From assembly GCA_043808325.1 (NCBI GenBank), contig JAZDEY010000027.1, positions 1 to 5,024 on the forward strand: 5,024 bases of DNA. Reading direction: 5' to 3'. Below, in pieces: positions 1 to 5,024 of this stretch. Every line of letters begins with the position of its first letter. The first letter of the stretch is position 1. Both the position numbers and the translations under genes were made by a program. The stretch comes from JAZDEY01 sp043808325 [NCBI: Candidatus Eiseniibacteriota bacterium]. Its GTDB lineage: Bacteria > Arandabacterota > Arandabacteria > Arandabacterales. The notes below the pieces were generated by a model, which was not told the DNA's origin, ran no database searches, and worked only from the letters and a program-made list of their open reading frames with translations.

Positions 1-308
1 GACTTGCCTGTCCTGCCCCTCACCCGAGCCCGACACTAACTGGCGCATGCTCACGTGTGTAGCCCACCATTTGACTGGGACGGTACGAGGGAACCGATGT
101 GTTTCTAGGTCGCGATGGGGCTTGCCCCTCGCAGGTTCCTCGCGGGGAACCCTGAACCTCTATAGGGGTTTGTGTGGGACAGCTTCTTCCCACACCAAAT
201 GATGAGAAACTAAGTCAGGCAGTAGGGTCTTGAAGAACAAAGAAACCGGCGGCCCCGCCCCGGCTTCATGGAGAATTATTTCGCTTGACCTGGGGTGGCC
301 TCATAGGT
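1..308. other. Gene-free stretch with several hairpins
   Basis: I see no convincing gene here. The stretch contains three small inverted repeats in a row: GGGG/CCCC at 117-120 and 125-128, GGTTCC/GGAACC at 134-139 and 146-151, and an 8-bp perfect stem GTGTGGGA/TCCCACAC at 172-179 and 188-195 with an 8-base loop. No T-run follows any of them on either strand, so they do not look like intrinsic terminators. One plus-strand frame stays open from base 2 to 199, but it has no recognisable product. The stretch could be a structured RNA, a decayed cassette, or the remains of the right half of attC-like site D. Confidence 0.3.
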
Positions 309-315
309 GTTCGGC
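290..315 (-). repeat. attC-like site D, left half only
   Basis: On the minus strand, four bases after the stop codon of the YkgJ-like gene, the core GCCGAAC (315-309) is followed by a spacer and arm ending in GAGG, one C, and CACCCC. This matches the left arms of sites A, B and C, which also carry a core, a short arm, one unpaired base and CACCC or a close variant. I cannot find a convincing complementary right arm with a GTTCGGC core between here and base 1. The site is therefore either a decayed attC or a chance match. Its position directly behind a gene is what is expected for a cassette. Confidence 0.35.
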
Positions 316-319
316 CAGC

Positions 320-838
320 CTAATCTCTTGACCGCCCCCAGAACTCTCGCTTCAGTCCTTCGTACACATTGAAGACGATGGGGCAGATCGAGCAATTGGA
401 AAAGGCCTGATTCAGCCTGAACACGAATTGACGCTTGTGCAAATGAGGAAAGGAGCGGCAGTCCCTGGGGCGCTGGTCGTAAACTGCACATCGGCTAGCC
501 CTCAGGAAGGGACAGGGCAGAACCCCGAACACCTCCCCTTCGCCCTCCTCATCTGCCTCCAGATAGCGCGACCGAAACTCTTCGACTGACTGACTCTGGT
601 GTCGGGCAAGGCGCTTCACGTCCGCCGCCTGGAGAACAGGGCGAACTACTCTGCAGCAGTTTGCGCACTGGGTACAGTCGATCTGGCTTGACACCTCTTG
701 GTAAAGCTCGCGAACTTTCGAATCGATTCTAGATATCGACAGACTGGAACACTTCAGAAAACACCGAAAAGCCCAGTTCGAAGTCTCTCGCCTCTCCGCG
801 AGTTCCCGGATTCGCTCAATGCTGCTCTCTATCTGCAT
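320..838 (-). CDS. YkgJ-family cysteine-cluster protein (putative zinc/iron-binding)
   Basis: The predicted product has 172 residues from the ATG at 838. It carries the family's cysteine cluster C-x2-C-x2-CC at residues 55-62. This is followed by CPF near 109, a cysteine at 117, the R-P-x2-C-R-x-F-P motif around 124-130, and two further cysteines at 149 and 152. Such proteins (UPF0153/CxxCxxCC) are thought to bind zinc or iron, but their biochemical role is poorly known. The open frame extends to 895, but the earlier ATG would lie inside attC-like site E. The ATG at 838 has AGGA five bases upstream and starts just after the site E core, so I prefer it; the ATG at 844 is the alternative. No signal peptide or membrane segment is visible. 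It is the only intact cargo gene here that is not part of a TA module. Confidence 0.8.
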   Translation of the reverse strand: MQIESSIERIRELAERRETSNWAFRCFLKCSSLSISRIDSKVRELYQEVSSQIDCTQCANCCRVVRPVLQAADVKRLARHQSQSVEEFRSRYLEADEEGEGEVFGVLPCPFLRASRCAVYDQRPRDCRSFPHLHKRQFVFRLNQAFSNCSICPIVFNVYEGLKREFWGRSRD

Positions 839-850
839 CGTCATCCTATG

Positions 851-941
851 GCCGAACGGCGTGGCTGAGGCGGCGGGGCGCTTGCCACCACGCAAGAGCC
901 ATGACCCCGCAGCATCCGTCCGCTCCAGCCACTTTTTATGC
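851..941 (-). repeat. attC-like site E (long imperfect palindrome)
   Basis: This lies between the phd stop and the YkgJ-like start. On the minus strand, arm GTGGCT (932-927) pairs perfectly with AGCCAC (866-861). One base, G926, is unpaired, then GAG and CGG pair with CTC and CCG around one bulged base (870). GCGGGG (910-905) can pair further in, and an inner hairpin CTTGC/GCAAG lies at 881-885 and 892-896. The right core is a clean GTTCGGC (857-851) after spacer GCC. The left core is poor (GCATAAA, 941-935). The unpaired base falls in the same place as in sites A, B and C. I infer an integron attC. A generic palindromic repeat is the alternative. Confidence 0.5.
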
Positions 942-952
942 CCGTAATGCTC

Positions 953-1177
953 CTACTCAACTCGCTTGCGGCCTTCGCGAACTAGGTGGACAATCTCCTC
1001 GCGAGTCAGCCCCAGGTTCACGCCCCCAACATCCAGGGGCGACCCCGACGCCGCCTGTGGATGAACCACGAACACCTGGCCATCGCGCCGAAGTATGCGA
1101 ACTGACCCCTCGCGACGCGCCTTCTCCAGAAGGGCCGCAAGCCGTTGCCGCGCCTCTGAGTATGTGTACACCTTCAC
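953..1177 (-). CDS. Phd/YefM-type antitoxin
   Basis: The predicted product has 74 residues. It begins with the V-K-V-Y-T-Y-S-E-A-R-Q-R stretch typical of a Phd/YefM-like antitoxin family, followed by a helix and an R-R-D-G-Q-V-F-V-V strand. Such antitoxins bind DNA with the N-terminal part and neutralise a toxin with the C-terminal part. The GTG start overlaps the vapC stop (GTGA), so the two genes are translationally coupled, with the toxin gene first. Longer forms starting upstream would run inside vapC and lack family similarity. Since the vapC 5' end is lost (see 1174-1536), this antitoxin may now have no working partner and possibly no native promoter. Confidence 0.75.
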   Translation of the reverse strand: MKVYTYSEARQRLAALLEKARREGSVRILRRDGQVFVVHPQAASGSPLDVGGVNLGLTREEIVHLVREGRKRVE

Positions 1178-1536
1178 TTTCCCACCTCCAGCACTTCGAT
1201 CCCGGATGCGCCGGCCGCACGAACTAGCCCTTTGTCCAGAGAGATCAGGCGGCAGCGCTGGCTCATCGCACAAGCCAACACGTATGCGTCATAGGCGTAC
1301 AGCCCATGCTCGATCGCCAGCCCGAGTGCATCGCCCAACGCCACGTCCAAGTATCGGATTGGGATCCGCTCGTACGCCCTCAGCACCTGCCTAATCTGGC
1401 TGCCGTCGATGCGGCCGCGCTTGAACATCGCTGCCAGTGCGTTGCCAATCTCCCAGTGAACAGAGGCCGGCGCCACAAGGTTCGAGCCACGGGTCAATTT
1501 GATAAGCGTCGCTATGCTCCGACTACTGGTCAATAA
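1174..1536 (-). pseudogene. VapC-like PIN-domain toxin lacking its N-terminus
   Basis: The reading frame opens at a GTG at 1623 and runs 149 codons, but only about residue 30 onward resembles a PIN-domain ribonuclease. Three acidic residues of the PIN active site are recognisable: Glu58 in H-W-E-I-G-N, Asp112 in Y-A-Y-D-A-Y, and Asp130 in L-I-S-L-D. The first catalytic aspartate, normally near residue 5 in a V-x-D-x-S motif, is absent. The first 29 codons instead read through group II intron-like sequence. A TTG at 1533 preceded by AGGA could restart translation, but the product would still lack the first aspartate. The gene overlaps the downstream phd start by four bases. I infer a non-functional toxin. 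A non-nucleolytic role in binding the antitoxin cannot be excluded. Confidence 0.7.
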
Positions 1537-1653
1537 AGTCCTAAATCGCCGGTCATTTATTCCGAAATAAGCACCCTTCTGCTTGCCTTCGGCTTCGCGT
1601 ACACCTGGCACGGGGACATTCACCCCGCAAGCGGTATGTCATGCCTGGCACAC
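1537..1653 (-). mobile_element. Group II intron 5'-end fragment (degenerate)
   Basis: On the minus strand the segment begins GTGTGCCAGG, matching the group II intron 5' consensus GTGYG. It continues with a GGGG-TGAATGT-CCCC hairpin (1626-1612), close to the GGGGTGAAAGTCCCC element common near the 5' end of bacterial group II introns. It then carries CGAAGCCGAAGGCAAGC (1597-1581), a phrase I recognise from domain I. No reverse transcriptase, domain V or 3' end is present, so this is a remnant. The junction with vapC, near 1537, is approximate. The intron reads in the same direction as the cassette genes, and its 5' end abuts attC-like site C. Recognition is from memory of intron sequences, not from a folded model. 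Confidence 0.5.
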
Positions 1654-1709
1654 ACGGCGCCGATCACCGGCTCGGCCCAGCCGAGTCCGTGTGGAGCGGC
1701 AGGTTCGGC
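1654..1709 (-). repeat. attC-like site C, right core interrupted by intron fragment
   Basis: The site starts three bases after the mazF stop. On the minus strand it has core GCCGAAC (1709-1703), spacer CT, arm GCCGCT (1700-1695), unpaired C1694, then CAC and a loop containing the perfect stem CTCGGC/GCCGAG (1685-1680 and 1676-1671). The return arms CCGGTG and ATCGGC (1664-1659) are followed by spacer GCC and then GT, where a GTTCGGC core is expected. Instead, GTGTGCC of the intron fragment follows. The left arm and core match those of site A at 17 of 21 positions. The same hairpin could also terminate mazEF transcripts, though no T-run follows. Confidence 0.5.
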
Positions 1710-1711
1710 CC

Positions 1712-2047
1712 TCAGTAGATACACGCATCCAATATTGAGAGAACCTCTTCAAGCAAGGCGTCAGTAGCCTTGCCGATCGGCTTCGCTTTGCGAGCACGGA
1801 AATCAATCGATTTGACTTGTTCGACCATCACAAATCCGGTGAGATCTTTGCAGTCTACAACGCCGACATGAAACGGAAACTGCCGATCGGTGTTGGTAAG
1901 ATGACAAACTATTGCCAGCCCTGTGTGCTTGTTGAACAGCGTGTTGCTGACGACTAAAGCAGGCCGTCGGCCCCTCTGCTCATGACCGGATTGCGGGTCA
2001 AGAGTAACAGCAACAAAGTCCCCCTTTCATGGAATGTAGGCCTCCAT
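1712..2047 (-). pseudogene. mazF: MazF/PemK endoribonuclease with in-frame TGA at codon 7
   Basis: The frame encodes a MazF-like protein of 111 codons that is interrupted only once, by TGA at codon 7 (2029-2027). Around the stop it reads M-E-A-Y-I-P-stop-K-G-D-F, where relatives carry an arginine or another residue before the G-D motif. A single C-to-T change from CGA explains the stop. The remainder is well kept: L-D-P-Q-S-G-H-E-Q-R-G-R-R-P-A-L-V-V-S near residues 16-34, and V-E-Q-V-K-S-I-D near 77-84. MazF toxins cut mRNA at short sequences. The ATG directly abuts the mazE stop and has a strong GGGAGGTG Shine-Dalgarno. I see no ATG, GTG or TTG just after the stop to rescue a near-full product. 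It is either a recent nonsense mutation or a sequencing error. Confidence 0.85.
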
Positions 2048-2296
2048 CTACCACACCTCCCTGCCCGCCGGCCTTCCCCAATCGACTTCGCAGGCTCTGT
2101 AATTCCTCGGGATCTGCGAGATCAGACGTGCCAGACTGTGCCTGCCCCGGACACGCCTTACGGGCGCAATGACGATCAGCCCGTCTCGAGCGCTCACATC
2201 AACTTCATCACCAAGGGATATCCGCGCATTCCGAAGGACTTCCTTGGCAAGACGAAGCCCCTGGCTATTACCCCATTTCTGGATCTTCGTTACCAT
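2048..2296 (-). CDS. mazE: MazE-family antitoxin (SpoVT/AbrB fold)
   Basis: The predicted product has 82 residues. The N-terminal T-K-I-Q-K-W-G-N-S-Q-G-L-R-L (residues 3-16) is the signature of MazE swapped-hairpin DNA-binding domains. The C-terminal E-V-D-W-G-x-P-x-G-R-E-V-W is the tail that binds MazF in this family. The ATG at 2296 is chosen because GGAGGTG lies five bases upstream and the protein begins as relatives do; the frame extends to 2350 only through the promoter. It is the first gene of a mazE-mazF pair with the mazF ATG directly after its stop. It should repress its own promoter, probably through the palindrome at 2312-2330. The gene is intact although mazF is not. Confidence 0.88.
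   Translation of the reverse strand: MVTKIQKWGNSQGLRLAKEVLRNARISLGDEVDVSARDGLIVIAPVRRVRGRHSLARLISQIPRNYRACEVDWGRPAGREVW
2054..2061 (-). promoter_or_regulatory. Shine-Dalgarno of mazF
   Basis: GGGAGGTG lies six bases before the ATG at 2047. It fixes the mazF start, and so shows that the TGA at codon 7 is inside the coding frame rather than in a leader. Confidence 0.75.
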
Positions 2297-2311
2297 GTTC
2301 GCACCTCCAGC

Positions 2312-2350
2312 GGTTATACTAAGTATAGCCATCGGGCCAACCGCTCTCAA
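2312..2350 (-). promoter_or_regulatory. mazEF promoter with palindromic operator
   Basis: On the minus strand TTGAGA (2350-2345) is followed by a 17-base spacer and TATACT (2327-2322), a good sigma70-type promoter. The -10 box is half of a palindrome TATACT-T-AGTATA (2315-2327), extended by GG/CC at 2312-2313 and 2329-2330. Such a site over the -10 region would suit autorepression by the MazE or MazEF complex. The promoter lies just after the lone attC core F, so it appears to belong to the cassette. Confidence 0.7.
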
Positions 2351-2360
2351 GTAGAATTGG

Positions 2361-2367
2361 GCCGAAC
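2361..2367 (-). repeat. Lone attC-like right core F
   Basis: GTTCGGC on the minus strand matches exactly the right cores of sites B and E. As in those sites, it is followed directly by a cassette promoter (mazEF). The left part of the site is absent; the IS-end-like segment 2370-2433 sits where it should be. A seven-base match alone is weak. Position supports it. Confidence 0.35.
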
Positions 2368-2369
2368 GG

Positions 2370-2433
2370 TGTCAGGGGTCGGTCAAAACCAGCCACCCGG
2401 GGTCGAATTAGAACTGGCCATCTTTGAGGGACA
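2370..2433. mobile_element. IS21-type end remnant (64 bp)
   Basis: On the plus strand the segment begins TGTCAGGGGTCGGTCAAAAC followed by CAGCCAC. This resembles the long terminal repeats of IS21-family elements (TGTCA...GGTCAAAA...GAGCCAC). It contains a second related block around 2401-2420 (AACTGGCC) and ends GGGACA, giving TGTC/GACA termini. No transposase gene is present and no target duplication is visible. The segment separates the intact half of hepT from the lone attC core F. I infer that insertion followed by deletion removed the hepT 3' half and most of that attC. Confidence 0.4.
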
Positions 2434-2584
2434 TCGGCTATACCTACTTCCAGCGTCTGAAGGTTGCGTATCACCGCGTCCTGGACCAGACTCGAGGAAA
2501 AGAACGCCTCTCGTCCTCCCGCGGTGTAGCCCTCGATTCGCGAGATACAGCGCAGAATGTGCTGGAGGTAGACGCGGTCATCCT

Positions 2585-2869
2585 TCACAGGGGGATCGCC
2601 TCCCCCAGAACATGCTCGCGAAGCAATTCGTCCAATCCCCGCTCTGTCACGACCTGGACTCGTCGCCCTAGCAGATCCTCAAGCTCTGCCACAAATCCCC
2701 CAGGGAACCAAGCACTCGGATCTGGGCCAACGTCGATTAGCAGGTCCACATCGCTGGCAGGACCAGCATCTCCCCGTGCCATCGACCCGAAAACCCGAAC
2801 CCTTGTTACACCATGCTTCTTCGCCAGCGTGAGAATCTGGTCACGCTTCGACTTGACAAGATCTACCAT
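2585..2869 (-). CDS. mntA: MntA-like minimal nucleotidyltransferase antitoxin
   Basis: The predicted product has 94 residues and is a single minimal nucleotidyltransferase domain. The G-S-x10-D-x-D motif is complete: Gly28-Ser29 and Asp40-x-Asp42 in G-S-M-A-R-G-D-A-G-P-A-S-D-V-D. In MntA-HepT pairs this enzyme neutralises HepT by adding AMP to a tyrosine. The third acidic position, often V-D-x-V-T in relatives, reads V-Q-V-V-T here (Gln72), so catalysis may be weakened; this is inferred from memory of the family. The ATG at 2869 is preferred over the GTG at 2878 because GAGGGG lies at a usable distance before it. Its stop overlaps the hepT start. The gene is intact next to a truncated toxin. 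Confidence 0.85.
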   Translation of the reverse strand: MVDLVKSKRDQILTLAKKHGVTRVRVFGSMARGDAGPASDVDLLIDVGPDPSAWFPGGFVAELEDLLGRRVQVVTERGLDELLREHVLGEAIPL

Positions 2870-2896
2870 CGGAAACACCCCCTCAATCCTATCCCC

Positions 2897-2902
2897 ATTA
2901 TA
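2897..2902 (-). promoter_or_regulatory. Putative mntA -10 box
   Basis: A perfect TATAAT lies about 28 bases before the mntA ATG on the minus strand. No good -35 box is visible at 16-18 bases; the nearest is TGTGAG at 2925-2920. The box lies between attC-like site B and mntA, as expected for a cassette-borne promoter. Confidence 0.45.
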
Positions 2903-2957
2903 CAGTACTCAGCACCCAACTCACAGCTCAGAGGTCGCGCCAGCCAATCTGCCTCCC

Positions 2958-3027
2958 GCCGAACGCCTCGGCTCACCCAGCGGCGCTCATGATGCGATGG
3001 CGCCGTCGGGTGCAGCCGATGTCAGAC
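2958..3027 (-). repeat. attC-like site B (complete fold)
   Basis: On the minus strand: left core GTCTGAC (3027-3021), arm TCGGCT (3019-3014), unpaired G3013, CACCC (3012-3008), inner stem GGCGC/GCGCC (3004-3000 and 2986-2982), GGGTG (2978-2974), arm AGCCGA (2973-2968), spacer GGC, right core GTTCGGC (2964-2958). Both arm pairs are perfect. The single unpaired base is in the left arm, as in sites A, C and E. The left core deviates from the RYYYAAC consensus by one base. The mntA promoter follows about 55 bases later. I infer an integron attC site. Confidence 0.6.
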
Positions 3028-3133
3028 GGCTGCAAACGATTGTTCGATTAGATCGCAAGCTGCACCAACTGGGTTTTGAGACTGAAGCCGTCGCGCAAAA
3101 CCGGCCGCGCCGACTTTCGCCGCAAGACCTCTG

Positions 3134-3414
3134 AAGGTGGCACGAATGATTCAACCCTGGCATTCTCGGGAATTGGGCCAAGCTCGTCACGAGAGTGCCC
3201 ATCGGAAACAGAATAACTGGCTCACAATCAAGTCTGGCTGAAACTGTTCCGCGAGTTCCCGCGCTTCCGGGAGGACTTCGTTCGACCAGCCCGTCAAAAT
3301 TGGGTTCCGCTCGATCGCAGGTTTCCGACAAATGCCTTTTCCTACAGATTCAACGGTGCGCGTCAGCGGCAGCAAGGTGGCGCGGATGTTGCCAGCCACA
3401 CCCGCAAAAGCCAT
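3134..3414 (-). pseudogene. Possible glycosyltransferase (GT1-like) fragment, frameshifted
   Basis: From the ATG at 3414 the frame reads M-A-F-A-G-V-A-G-N-I-R-A-T-L-L-P-L-T-R, recalling the nucleotide-sugar transferase start F-A-G-x-x-x-x-H-x-x-P-L-x-x-L-A-R, but without the usual histidine. It later gives F-Q-P-D-L-I-V-S-Q-L-F-C-F before a stop at 3187. A second frame continues with M-G-T-L-V-T-S-L-A-Q-F-P-R (from 3202), which resembles the next segment of such enzymes. About 60-70 residues that relatives have between these parts would be missing. If the assignment is right, it is a decayed cassette lying between half site G and site B. The call rests on weak motif memory. Confidence 0.25.
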
Positions 3415-3430
3415 GCCGCCGAAGCCAAGT

Positions 3431-3452
3431 CCGCTCGAGCCACTGGTTCGGG
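3431..3452 (-). repeat. attC-like site G, left half only
   Basis: Nine bases after the higA stop at 3462, the minus strand reads core CCCGAAC (3452-3446), spacer CA, arm GTGGCT (3443-3438), one C, then GAGCGG (3436-3431). The arm, single base and GAGCGG match the left side of site E except for the single base itself. No matching right arm is found before site B. The higBA cassette may have lost the rest of its own attC to a deletion. Confidence 0.4.
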
Positions 3453-3461
3453 TTCAGCGTC

Positions 3462-3767
3462 CTAGTTGCTCGCCTTTAGGACTACCACCTCACGCTCCAG
3501 CCGATCTTTCAGGCGCTCCCGCTGAACCTCAAGATCATACCGTGTCTGCAGATTGAGCCAAAACCGATCGCTGGTGCTGAAATACCTCGATAGGCGCAGG
3601 GCGGTGTCAGCGGAGATCGCACGCTTTCCATGCACTATCTCATTCACACGCCGGGCAGGCACCGTGATGTCCTTGGCCAGACGATACTGGCTAATCTGCA
3701 ATGGCCTCAGGAACTCCTCCAGCAGTATCTCCCCCGGGTGTATAGGCGCGATATGCTTGCCTGCCAT
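3462..3767 (-). CDS. higA: HigA-family antitoxin, module 1
   Basis: The predicted product has 101 residues. It begins with the family's P-I-H-P-G-E-I-L-L-E-E-F-L motif at residues 8-20 and has a helix-turn-helix of the XRE type at about 25-60, including R-V-N-E-I-V-H-G-K-R-A-I-S-A-D-T-A-L-R-L. F-W-L-N-L-Q and Y-D-L-E follow, as in HigA/VapI proteins. It binds and neutralises HigB and represses the operon. AGGAGGG lies five bases before the ATG. It follows higB by ten bases, in the toxin-first order usual for higBA. The gene appears intact. Confidence 0.92.
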   Translation of the reverse strand: MAGKHIAPIHPGEILLEEFLRPLQISQYRLAKDITVPARRVNEIVHGKRAISADTALRLSRYFSTSDRFWLNLQTRYDLEVQRERLKDRLEREVVVLKASN

Positions 3768-3777
3768 CTCAGCCCTC

Positions 3778-4059
3778 CTAATGGTAATCGGCTATCTCTA
3801 CGTCGTAGGCGTCGCCTCGCTCCCACCGGAAGCAGACCCGCCACTGATCATTGATCCGAATACTATGCTGGCCGTCCCGTCTCCCCTTCAACTTCTCAAG
3901 CCTGTTCCCCGGTGGCACCGTCAGGTCGTGCAGCGACTCTGCTGCATCCAGGATCAGAAGCTTCCGCAGCGCCGCCCGGTAGACGTCCTGAGGGAACCGG
4001 CGTGACGCCTCTCGCCGGAACACTCTTTCGGCTTCATGGTCGCGAAACGACCTTATCAT
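3778..4059 (-). CDS. higB: HigB-family toxin, module 1
   Basis: The predicted product has 93 residues, the normal size for RelE-fold HigB mRNA endonucleases. Family blocks include M-I-R-S-F-R-D at the start, V-P-P-G-N-R-L-E-K-L-K-G at 48-59, H-S-I-R-I-N-D-Q-W-R-V-C-F-R-W at 65-79, and D-V-E-I-A-D-Y-H at the end. Such toxins cut mRNA at the ribosome. The ATG lies only six bases from the -10 box, so the transcript is probably leaderless. The gene pairs with higA at 3462-3767, and no disruption is seen. Confidence 0.92.
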   Translation of the reverse strand: MIRSFRDHEAERVFRREASRRFPQDVYRAALRKLLILDAAESLHDLTVPPGNRLEKLKGRRDGQHSIRINDQWRVCFRWERGDAYDVEIADYH

Positions 4060-4065
4060 AGCTCA

Positions 4066-4103
4066 ATGATACCGCACTGCGTTATTACCGTCAAGCGTTA
4101 TTA
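4066..4103 (-). promoter_or_regulatory. higBA module 1 promoter with direct-repeat operator
   Basis: TTGACG (4094-4089), a 17-base spacer and TATCAT (4071-4066) form a strong sigma70-type promoter on the minus strand. Only six bases separate the -10 box from the higB ATG, so the start of transcription should fall on or next to the start codon. Two copies of TAATAACGC (minus strand; 4103-4095 and 4087-4079), spaced 16 bases start to start, flank the -35 box. They are candidate operator half-sites for HigA. Confidence 0.75.
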
Positions 4104-4115
4104 TTGCTGCCTGAA

Positions 4116-4178
4116 CCCGAACGTGCCGCTCACCCGCAGGACGCGAAGCGGACTGTCGGGTGGAGTGGCTGGTTGGGC
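4116..4178 (-). repeat. attC-like site A (complete fold)
   Basis: It lies six bases after the higA-2 stop and 12 bases before the direct repeats of the next promoter. On the minus strand: core GCCCAAC (4178-4172), a perfect match to the attC left-core consensus RYYYAAC; spacer CA; arm GCCACT (4169-4164); unpaired C4163; CACCCG (4162-4157); a 20-base loop; CGGGTG (4136-4131); arm AGCGGC (4130-4125, one G-T pair); spacer AC; right core GTTCGGG (4122-4116). This reproduces the plan of integron attC sites, including the extra-helical base, and is the best example in the window. Confidence 0.62.
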
Positions 4179-4184
4179 AGCCTT

Positions 4185-4487
4185 TCATGCGCTACGGTCG
4201 ACTGGCTCCAACCGACCGATCTCCTCGGCATTCTTACCGTGGATGGCGTGCCACAAATCCCAGTCCATCTGAAGCCCTAGCCAAAACTCTGCAGGCATCC
4301 CCAAGACTCGAGCCAAGCGAAGCGCAGTATCCGGCGTCACCCCACGCCTGCCGCGCACGATCTCGTTCAAGCGGGGAAATGATACGCCCAAGTGACTGGC
4401 CAACTCAGACTGGCTCATCCCCAATGGCTTGAGGAACTCCTCCAGGAGCATCTCGCCAGGGTGTGTCGGCGCACGATGACGTGGCAA
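4185..4487 (-). CDS. higA: HigA-family antitoxin, module 2 (TTG start)
   Basis: The predicted product has 100 residues with P-T-H-P-G-E-M-L-L-E-E-F-L-K-P-L near residues 7-22. An XRE-type helix-turn-helix spans about 24-60 (M-S-Q-S-E-L-A-S-H-L-G-V ... L-N-E-I-V-R-G), followed by F-W-L-G-L-Q. A TTG at 4487 has GGAGGGG six bases upstream and gives the usual family N-terminus. An ATG at 4541 would add 18 basic residues unlike relatives and has no properly spaced ribosome site, so I prefer TTG; this is not certain. It lies 55 bases after higB 2 and is followed directly by attC-like site A. The gene is intact and related to the module 1 antitoxin. Confidence 0.88.
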   Translation of the reverse strand: MPRHRAPTHPGEMLLEEFLKPLGMSQSELASHLGVSFPRLNEIVRGRRGVTPDTALRLARVLGMPAEFWLGLQMDWDLWHAIHGKNAEEIGRLEPVDRSA

Positions 4488-4542
4488 CCGCCGCCCCTCC
4501 GCGATTCGCTGCCTTCTCAAGCCCCCCGCCCCCCGGCTCATC

Positions 4543-4836
4543 CTAGTGGTAGTCTGCGATCTCAACCTCATACGCCTCTCCATTCTCCCATCGAAAACAC
4601 ACCCGATACTGCTCATTTCTGCGAATACTGTGCTGCCCGACCCTGTCTCCCTTGAGAGCCTCCAGATGGTTCCCCGGAGGCACCGCCAGATCCCGCAATT
4701 CAGCCACACAATTGATCTGATCCAGCTTCCGCCTGGCAACCGCCCACACAGTCGGGGGGCACGACCTTCGCGCAGCCCTTGTGTCCAGCCCATCGAAGAT
4801 ATCGGCAGTGCCAGAATCTCGAAATGATCGTATCAC
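4543..4836 (-). CDS. higB: HigB-family toxin, module 2
   Basis: The predicted product has 97 residues and is a RelE-fold HigB toxin. It shares M-I-R-S-F-R-D, V-P-P-G-N-x-L-E-x-L-K-G, Q-H-S-I-R-x-N and Y-R-V-C-F-R-W with the module 1 toxin, and both end in V-E-I-A-D-Y-H. The first 40 residues differ more, with four extra residues. The start is a GTG at 4836, seven bases after the -10 box, with no room for a Shine-Dalgarno, which suggests a leaderless message. It is the toxin-first gene of a higBA pair and appears intact. Confidence 0.9.
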   Translation of the reverse strand: MIRSFRDSGTADIFDGLDTRAARRSCPPTVWAVARRKLDQINCVAELRDLAVPPGNHLEALKGDRVGQHSIRRNEQYRVCFRWENGEAYEVEIADYH

Positions 4837-4843
4837 GAGTTAT

Positions 4844-4872
4844 ATTATACCGGATACCGTTATAGTTGTCAA
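4844..4872 (-). promoter_or_regulatory. Perfect-consensus sigma70 promoter of higBA module 2
   Basis: TTGACA (4872-4867), a 17-base spacer and TATAAT (4849-4844) on the minus strand match consensus in all twelve positions. The spacer holds a direct repeat, CGGTATC then CGGTATA, overlapping the -10 box, a candidate operator for HigA. Only seven bases separate the -10 box from the GTG start. Such a strong promoter would need tight repression. It could also drive cassettes further down the array. Confidence 0.82.
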
Positions 4873-5024
4873 CCCATTCTATGCCTTGCCCTCTGTCAGT
4901 TTTCGCGGGTGGGGGCAGGGGTTCGTTACGGGGATGATGGCGCGTGGGGCCGTGGACGCCTTGCGACGTTATTGGTGTGGCGGATGATGTGGGTGATACG
5001 GATGTGGTTGCCCTGCTTTGCCAG
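4873..5024. other. Unassigned stretch at window edge
   Basis: I see no supported gene, promoter or attC-like fold in these 152 bases. Short frames are open on both strands at the edge, but none resembles a known family. If the array continues beyond the window, an attC site would be expected before the higBA-2 promoter; no GTTCGGC-type core is visible here. Confidence 0.3.

What the first reader, a model, noticed from the sequence alone, without database searches (positions are those of the whole stretch)
290..4178. TA-rich cassette array with repeated attC-like sites and no integrase in view
Four near-complete (A, B, C, E) and three partial (D, F, G) sites follow genes or modules, most within about ten bases of a stop codon. 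On the minus strand they share core, 6-bp arm, one unpaired base, CACCC-like arm, loop, complementary arms and GTTCGG(C/G) core. The extra base is always in the left arm, which is typical of integron attC. Right cores deviate from GTTRRRY at the first R, so the family is unusual. Together with five TA modules, this points to a chromosomal integron or an integrase-less attC cluster of a divergent kind.
Basis: partly seen in the sequence, partly recalled or inferred. Interest (0 to 1): 0.85.

Follow-up and report, generated by a model that had tools for sequence, protein, structure and literature searches.

The report
Integron cassette array rich in toxin-antitoxins
This stretch is part of an integron gene-cassette array, a known bacterial gene-collecting device, in which several cassettes carry toxin-antitoxin pairs; its recombination sites look unusual beside textbook examples but match those of other known integrons, so it is an ordinary find.

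Summary
Two attC-like sites on the minus strand (4116-4178 and about 2958-3027) are near complete. Three more (starting at 3452, 1709 and 941) have a clear left half and a weaker or decayed right half. The site at 315 and the lone core at 2361-2367 cannot be told from chance. Two attC covariance models, built without window sequence, each put their four best window hits on the minus strand at these places (best E 2e-7 for R1; 4e-5 for R2).

The integron reading is supported. The 'unusual, divergent family' part is not. GTTCGGC is the right core in 39 of 41 model hits near integron integrase genes or remnants in seven genomes; 6 of the 11 sites that trained the picking model already had it. A HigBA pair 61-67% identical to one in the window lies in an attC-bearing contig with an integrase remnant, L007. 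Toxin-antitoxin genes are among the commonest cassette functions (PMC7370490, passages). No integrase is visible in 5 kb and no genome is held, so sedentary integron versus integrase-less cluster (CALIN) stays open. New member of a known kind, partly decayed; low interest.

The parts
4543..4836 (-). HigB-like toxin (module 1)
   Evidence: PF05015 59.0 bits over cut-off 27; upstream TTGACA-17-TATAAT on the minus strand, read by eye
4185..4493 (-). HigA antitoxin (module 1)
   Evidence: TIGR02607 113.7 bits over cut-off 47.7
4116..4178 (-). attC site, near complete (GCCCAAC ... GTTCGGG)
   Evidence: R1 30.4 bits E 2.2e-7; R2 21.9 bits E 4e-5; bottom-strand fold z -3.5
3778..4059 (-). HigB-like toxin (module 2)
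   Evidence: PF05015 74.8 bits; 61% identical to a HigB of L007
3462..3767 (-). HigA antitoxin (module 2)
   Evidence: TIGR02607 112 bits; 67% identical to a HigA of L007
3348..3452 (-). attC site, good left half (3429-3452), uncertain right half (core GTTGAAT at 3348-3354 proposed)
   Evidence: left half 19.9 bits; full-site evidence weak (E 0.54 with another right end, z 0.05)
3028..3347 (-). proposed cassette without a recognised gene
   Evidence: ORFs 2987-3331 and 3187-3414 match no Pfam family
2958..3027 (-). attC site, near complete (GTCTGAC ... GTTCGGC; 11 paired bases with one bulged base in the left arm)
   Evidence: R1 16.4 bits E 0.002; R2 22.0 bits E 3.7e-5; fold z -2.6
2585..2878 (-). 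MNT-type nucleotidyltransferase antitoxin
   Evidence: PF01909 46.9 bits over cut-off; NF047752 MntA 37.8 bits, below its cut-off 60
2319..2588 (-). HepT-like toxin, only the N-terminal part
   Evidence: PF01934 19.4 bits, below cut-off 23.5, positions 1-46 of 120
2361..2367 (-). isolated right core GTTCGGC; possible remnant attC
   Evidence: sequence; chance not excluded
2048..2350 (-). MazE-like antitoxin
   Evidence: PF04014 30.2 bits over cut-off 24.7
1712..2047 (-). MazF/PemK-like toxin with an in-frame stop near its start (2027-2029)
   Evidence: PF02452 89.7 bits over cut-off 23.1, scanned as 1718-2038 with the stop read as X; stop positions
1659..1709 (-). attC site, clear left half (GCCGAAC), right core decayed or displaced
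   Evidence: left half 14.1 bits; R2 13.8 bits E 0.008; R1 E 0.12
1174..1623 (-). PIN-domain toxin, N-terminal part of the domain not matched
   Evidence: PF01850 30.9 bits over cut-off 23.6, profile 23-119 of 120
953..1189 (-). Phd/YefM-like antitoxin
   Evidence: PF02604 28 bits, just below cut-off 29.8 (scanned as ORF 953-1273)
851..941 (-). attC site (left core degenerate GCATAAA, arms good, right core GTTCGGC)
   Evidence: left half 16.7 bits; R2 11.1 bits E 0.048; fold z -1.8; no full-length R1 hit
320..895 (-). CxxCxxCC zinc/iron-chelating domain protein
   Evidence: PF03692 43.2 bits over cut-off 23
309..315 (-). left core GCCGAAC after the stop of the last gene; possible end of array, rest of site not recognisable
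   Evidence: sequence; no model hit above chance; fold z +0.7

Best explanation
A stretch of an integron gene-cassette array, read on the minus strand: about seven cassettes, most ending in an attC site or what is left of one. Five are toxin-antitoxin modules (HigBA twice, MNT-HepT, MazEF, PIN-Phd), one encodes a CxxCxxCC protein and one has no recognised gene. Inferred from established integron biology, not shown here: an integron integrase (lost, or beyond the right end of the window) folded the bottom strand of each attC and recombined cassettes in; the toxin-antitoxin cassettes carry their own promoters and tend to resist loss of the array. Shown here: site homology to attC sites of arrays near integron integrases, common orientation, place after stop codons, and decay (truncated HepT, a stop in MazF, degenerate cores). 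The array is therefore probably old and partly inactive, either an integrase-less cluster (CALIN) or the distal part of a sedentary integron.
For: Models R1 (11 sites from L006-L008) and R2 (41 hits near integrase matches), neither containing window sequence, both have minus-strand window sites as their four best hits. Half-sites: 4 in the window, none of 2000 shuffles has 2 or more. Five sites start 2-11 bases after stops. The same attC arms with a GTTCGG core occur in 4 genome contigs, two of whose four genomes have an integron integrase over the TIGR02249 cut-off. In 61 genomes of the family of G003, 20 have such an integrase and 46 have R1 hits; in 7 of 8 stretches fetched around integrase matches both lie together. 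L007 holds a related HigBA pair (61% and 67% identical) in a contig with an integrase fragment and one strong attC. TIGR02607 and PF02604, matched here (PF02604 just below its cut-off), are named among the most abundant cassette functions (PMC7370490, passages).
Against: No integrase was found in the window: no such match in 14 of the 50 listed ORFs plus two other frames, only short tblastn pieces. Window sites score 8-30 bits with R1 against 33-63 bits for its own training sites. Two of the seven proposed sites (near 315 and 2361) have no support beyond a core, and the right half at 3348 is weak. R1 does not report the two attC-like sites next to the HigBA pair of L007 at E up to 5; one has a left half of 18.7 bits, the other rests on reading. 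Six HigA loci of the family of G003 have no R1 hit near them, so these modules also live outside such arrays.
Confidence: 0.92

Rival explanations
1. Defence or toxin-antitoxin island whose hairpins are transcription terminators or REP-like palindromes, not attC sites.
For: Five of the sites lie just after stop codons, where terminators also lie; no integrase is in view.
Against: Sites follow the attC layout (core, spacer, arm, bulge, arm, loop and back) and match models from arrays near integron integrases. Left half-sites whose right half pairs poorly still match in sequence, which a terminator would not require. The recognised sites lie in one orientation. No terminator scan was run.
Confidence: 0.05
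2. A categorically divergent integron-like system with its own recombinase and core GTTCGGC.
For: The core departs from GTTRRRY at its first R in the four right cores GTTCGG(C/G) seen.
Against: GTTCGGC is the right core in 39 of 41 model hits near integron integrase matches, six of the seven stretches having one over the TIGR02249 cut-off; GTTAGGC and GTTCGGC cores occur together in one array, L008.
Confidence: 0.03

Closest known systems
attC arrays in the family of G003 (contig of L008 labelled Gemmataceae, Planctomycetota), loci L008, L069-L072, L074-L076
   Same: Core pair GCCGAAC/GTTCGGC, five-base spacer, GCTG-CACC-like left arm with one unpaired base, GGTG-AGC-like right arm, one orientation; an integron integrase match in 7 of these 8 loci
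   Different: Window sites are more diverged and partly decayed; L008's genome has no integrase over the cut-off and the match in L072 is partial and below it; toxin-antitoxin content of those arrays was not counted
Desulfobacterales MAG integron remnant L007
   Same: HigBA pair 61-67% identical with a like-spaced -35/-10 pair (by reading), an attC with GTTCGGC core upstream, attC-like sequences on both sides of the pair (left half 18.7 bits on one side, by reading on the other)
   Different: Integrase fragment present in the same contig; R1 reports neither site next to the pair
CALIN, cluster of attC sites lacking an integrase
   Same: At least two attC sites less than 4 kb apart, no intI seen
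   Different: Absence of intI is not established, since only 5 kb is visible
Toxin-antitoxin cassettes of sedentary chromosomal integrons such as the Vibrio cholerae superintegron
   Same: Toxin-antitoxin cassettes with their own promoters among attC sites (PMC11023631, passages)
   Different: Other attC type (recalled); the window modules are partly broken

Membership tests
[quoted passage not shown]
   Sites 4116-4178 and 2958-3027: E 2.2e-7 and 0.0021 with R1, 4e-5 and 3.7e-5 with R2; our own models, not IntegronFinder's
Integron cassette array (attC cluster) | Inverse core RYYYAAC and core GTTRRRY | tested here: inconclusive
   AAC or GTT kept in several sites; fourth base of four right cores is C, as in 41 of 41 model hits near integrase matches; two left cores deviate (GTCTGAC, GCATAAA)
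Integron cassette array (attC cluster) | Imperfect palindrome folding on the bottom strand with extrahelical bases on one side | tested here: met
   Sites 4116 and 2957: fold z -3.5 and -2.6, one bulged base in the left arm; sites 850 and 1650 z -1.8 and -1.6; not met for sites 3348 and 240-315 (z 0.05 and 0.74)
Integron cassette array (attC cluster) | Sites in one orientation immediately downstream of genes | tested here: met
   Four best hits of both models on the minus strand; five left cores 2-11 bases after stops
Complete integron | Integron integrase gene with the IntI-specific patch | tested here: not met
   Not found in the window: no such Pfam match in the 14 of 50 listed ORFs plus two other frames scanned, and only two short tblastn pieces from three integrases; neighbourhood not available
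Complete integron | attI site and Pc promoter | not testable with these tools
   No flanking sequence held
CALIN | No integrase near the attC cluster | tested here: inconclusive
   None found within 5024 bases, beyond that unknown
Recombinationally active attC | Recombination with attI by an IntI | not testable with these tools
   Needs a bench assay

The most novel reading that the evidence does not exclude
A toxin-antitoxin-saturated array (five modules in about seven cassettes) of the planctomycete-type attC, in which addiction modules hold together an otherwise decaying integrase-less cluster in a lineage far from Vibrio.
Probability: 0.15. Interest if true: 0.4.

Novelty: new member of a known kind. 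Interest (0 to 1): 0.22.

Why it matters
It adds a toxin-antitoxin-rich array of an attC type whose common right core, GTTCGGC, falls outside the textbook GTTRRRY motif. A search that insists on GTTRRRY would miss such sites in planctomycete-like integrons. Otherwise it fits known biology: toxin-antitoxin cassettes and integrase-less clusters are common (PMC7370490, PMC9668308, passages).

Tried and rejected
Rfam scan of the window gave only two matches, both below their families' gathering scores. A pattern scan of viral contigs for the site gave 0, and an exact 29-base window string gave 0 there, so the source contig was not found. HigA relatives in viral contigs: 5 loci; my script found one site of score 25 or more in the five, in L004, and R1 one match at E 1.9, also in L004; no array. 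Window DNA against plasmids: 7 records, all at 60-80% identity and within the window's HigBA genes. Six HigA loci, the ones returned out of 18 matches listed in 9 of 61 genomes, gave no R1 hit at E up to 1: HigBA is not shown to be a cassette there. The Desulfobacterales family search held only one genome.

I suspected that 2372-2430 and about 1500-1620 are remnants of insertion-sequence ends of the IS21 type (from recall of such ends). Two plasmid searches gave no match and two short weak matches, so this is not claimed. R1's loci were chosen by a pattern with a GTTCGG core, and 6 of its 11 training sites have GTTCGGC, 4 GTTA and 1 GTGC, so the core count leans to that core; it shows that such arrays near integrases exist in number, not how frequent other cores are. 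One of the 41 rows (L070 2318-2414, minus) is the reverse-strand reading of another; without it the count is 38 of 40. One tblastn piece of an integrase against the window (38 residues, 45% identity, E 0.001 for this single comparison, inside the CxxCxxCC gene) is judged chance because it is short and that gene has its own family match; a second piece had E 0.22. Papers not named in the report were seen as search listings only.
Full report
What is there. The recognised genes of the 5024-base window lie on the minus strand. In order of transcription (from high to low coordinates) they are: HigB-HigA; HigB-HigA; a stretch of about 320 bases without a recognised gene; an MNT-type nucleotidyltransferase with a truncated HepT-like partner; MazE with a MazF that has an in-frame stop near its start; a PIN-domain protein with a Phd/YefM-like antitoxin; and a CxxCxxCC-domain protein. 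Both HigA proteins pass the TIGR02607 cut-off. The HepT, MntA and Phd matches fall below their curated cut-offs and these names rest partly on gene pairing. Each HigBA pair has a minus-strand -35/-10-like pair with a 17-base spacer directly upstream (TTGACA...TATAAT and TTGACG...TATCAT; read by eye, no promoter scan was run).

Are the sites real? I avoided training on the window. A pattern for the arms and the GTTCGG core found 4 genome contigs. Two of them, L006 (labelled Mycobacteriaceae MAG) and L008 (Gemmataceae MAG), are arrays of attC-like sites in one orientation. Eleven sites from L006, L007 and L008 gave covariance model R1. With filters off on the window, R1's four best hits, of 28 at E up to 10, are all on the minus strand: 4116-4178 (30.4 bits, E 2.2e-7), 2963-3022 (16.4 bits, E 0.002), 1659-1709 (10.3 bits, E 0.12) and 3418-3452 (8.0 bits, E 0.54); the next hits, at E 0.56 and above, begin with short palindromes found on either strand. 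A second model, R2, came from 41 R1 matches in eight stretches of genomes of the family of G003, fetched around integrase matches. Its four best window hits, of 28 at E up to 5, are 2958-3030 (E 3.7e-5), 4116-4178 (E 4e-5), 1659-1709 (E 0.008) and 851-941 (E 0.048), again all minus. E-values are rough by the tool's own account. R2 is not independent of R1, since R1 picked its members.

A left half-site matrix gives four window places of at least 14 bits, all minus: 4155-4178, 3429-3452, 918-941 and 1686-1709. Of 2000 dinucleotide shuffles, 1920 have none, 80 have one and none has two or more. In the 12 other loci scanned (outside L006-L008 and the window) two places reach 13.5 bits. The right half-site matrix is less telling: the 2958 site leads (18.1 bits), but a plus-strand place inside HigA comes second (11.3 bits) and the 851 site third (10.0 bits, 0.58 expected per shuffle). 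The left cores of five sites lie 2, 4, 6, 9 and 11 bases after a stop codon (the 4-base case is the weak site at 315). Folding the bottom strand as DNA gave z -3.5 (4116), -2.6 (2957), -1.8 (850), -1.6 (1650), 0.05 (3348) and 0.7 (240-315). So two sites are sound, three are recognisable but decayed or half, and two of the proposed seven (near 315 and 2361) cannot be told from chance.

Is the core unusual? In 61 genomes of the family of G003, 20 have an integron integrase over the TIGR02249 cut-off and 46 have R1 matches; all 14 well-known control genomes matched TIGR02249, none over its cut-off. In the fetched stretches, integrase matches and sites lie together in seven of eight; L073 gave no site, and in L072 the integrase match is partial and below the cut-off. 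Of 41 aligned sites, 39 have right core GTTCGGC and all 41 have C at the fourth base (38 of 40 GTTCGGC without one reverse-strand row). L008 mixes GTTAGGC and GTTCGGC cores. Six of R1's 11 training sites have GTTCGGC and four have GTTA, and its loci were picked by a GTTCGG pattern, so the count leans to this core; what it does show is that this core is common in ordinary integrons. Taxon-specific attC models, with Planctomycetes and Acidobacteria among 11 taxa, are already published (PMC8352920, passages).

How it most likely works. By established integron biology (not shown here) an integron integrase recombines the folded bottom strand of attC, here the window's plus strand, and cassettes enter at attI; the platform would lie beyond the right end of the window. 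Two extrahelical bases on one side, six nucleotides apart in the attC sites best excised by the integrases tested, are described (PMC3053210, passages). By inspection, position 16 of the left half is such a base in four window sites, with an equivalent in the 2958 site; this spacing reading is inference. [quoted passage not shown] L007 is the nearest parallel: a HigBA pair 61% and 67% identical to window HigB and HigA lies in a contig with an integrase fragment matching TIGR02249 positions 1-117 (139 bits, below the cut-off of 265) and one strong attC at 4851-4922. The sites directly beside that pair are weaker: a left half of 18.7 bits at 5538 and a downstream one seen only by reading; R1 reports neither at E up to 5.

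What is open. No genome is held for the window, so an integrase elsewhere is untested. CALINs are reported to be more abundant than integrons with intI among bacteria (PMC9668308, passages). Signs of decay (HepT truncation, the MazF stop, degenerate cores at 941, 1709 and 315) favour an old or inactive stretch. The host is unknown: the attC type resembles that of the family of G003, but of the 40 sites (26.7 to 58.4 bits, the reverse-strand row left out) 39 score above the window's best R1 score (30.4 bits), and six HigA loci from that family show no attC by R1.

Verdict. A real, partly decayed integron cassette array of a known attC type, rich in toxin-antitoxin modules: a new member of a known kind. 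The claim of a divergent kind is not supported.

Noticed in passing
window 1490-1623 and 2319-2440: The PIN gene lacks a match to the first 22 profile positions and the HepT gene matches only positions 1-46 of 120; both breaks border stretches that resemble insertion-sequence ends (recalled IS21-like repeats), but plasmid searches gave no support.
   Followed up: partly
window 2027-2029: In-frame TGA near the start of the MazF-like gene, so the toxin is probably broken or starts further in.
   Followed up: partly
L006 1-6061: A contig labelled Mycobacteriaceae MAG carries six attC sites of the planctomycete type; it may be misbinned or a real actinobacterial array. Its genome has no integron integrase over the cut-off.
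   Followed up: no
L069, L070, L071, L072, L074, L075, L076: In all seven stretches the integrase match lies on the same strand as the attC sites (one reverse-strand reading in L070 aside), unlike the divergent layout of class 1 integrons (recalled).
   Followed up: no
window 4844-4872 and 4066-4094: The two HigBA pairs, 58% identical in HigB, have similar -35/-10-like sequences with equal 17-base spacing; the L007 pair has a like one (by reading).
   Followed up: partly
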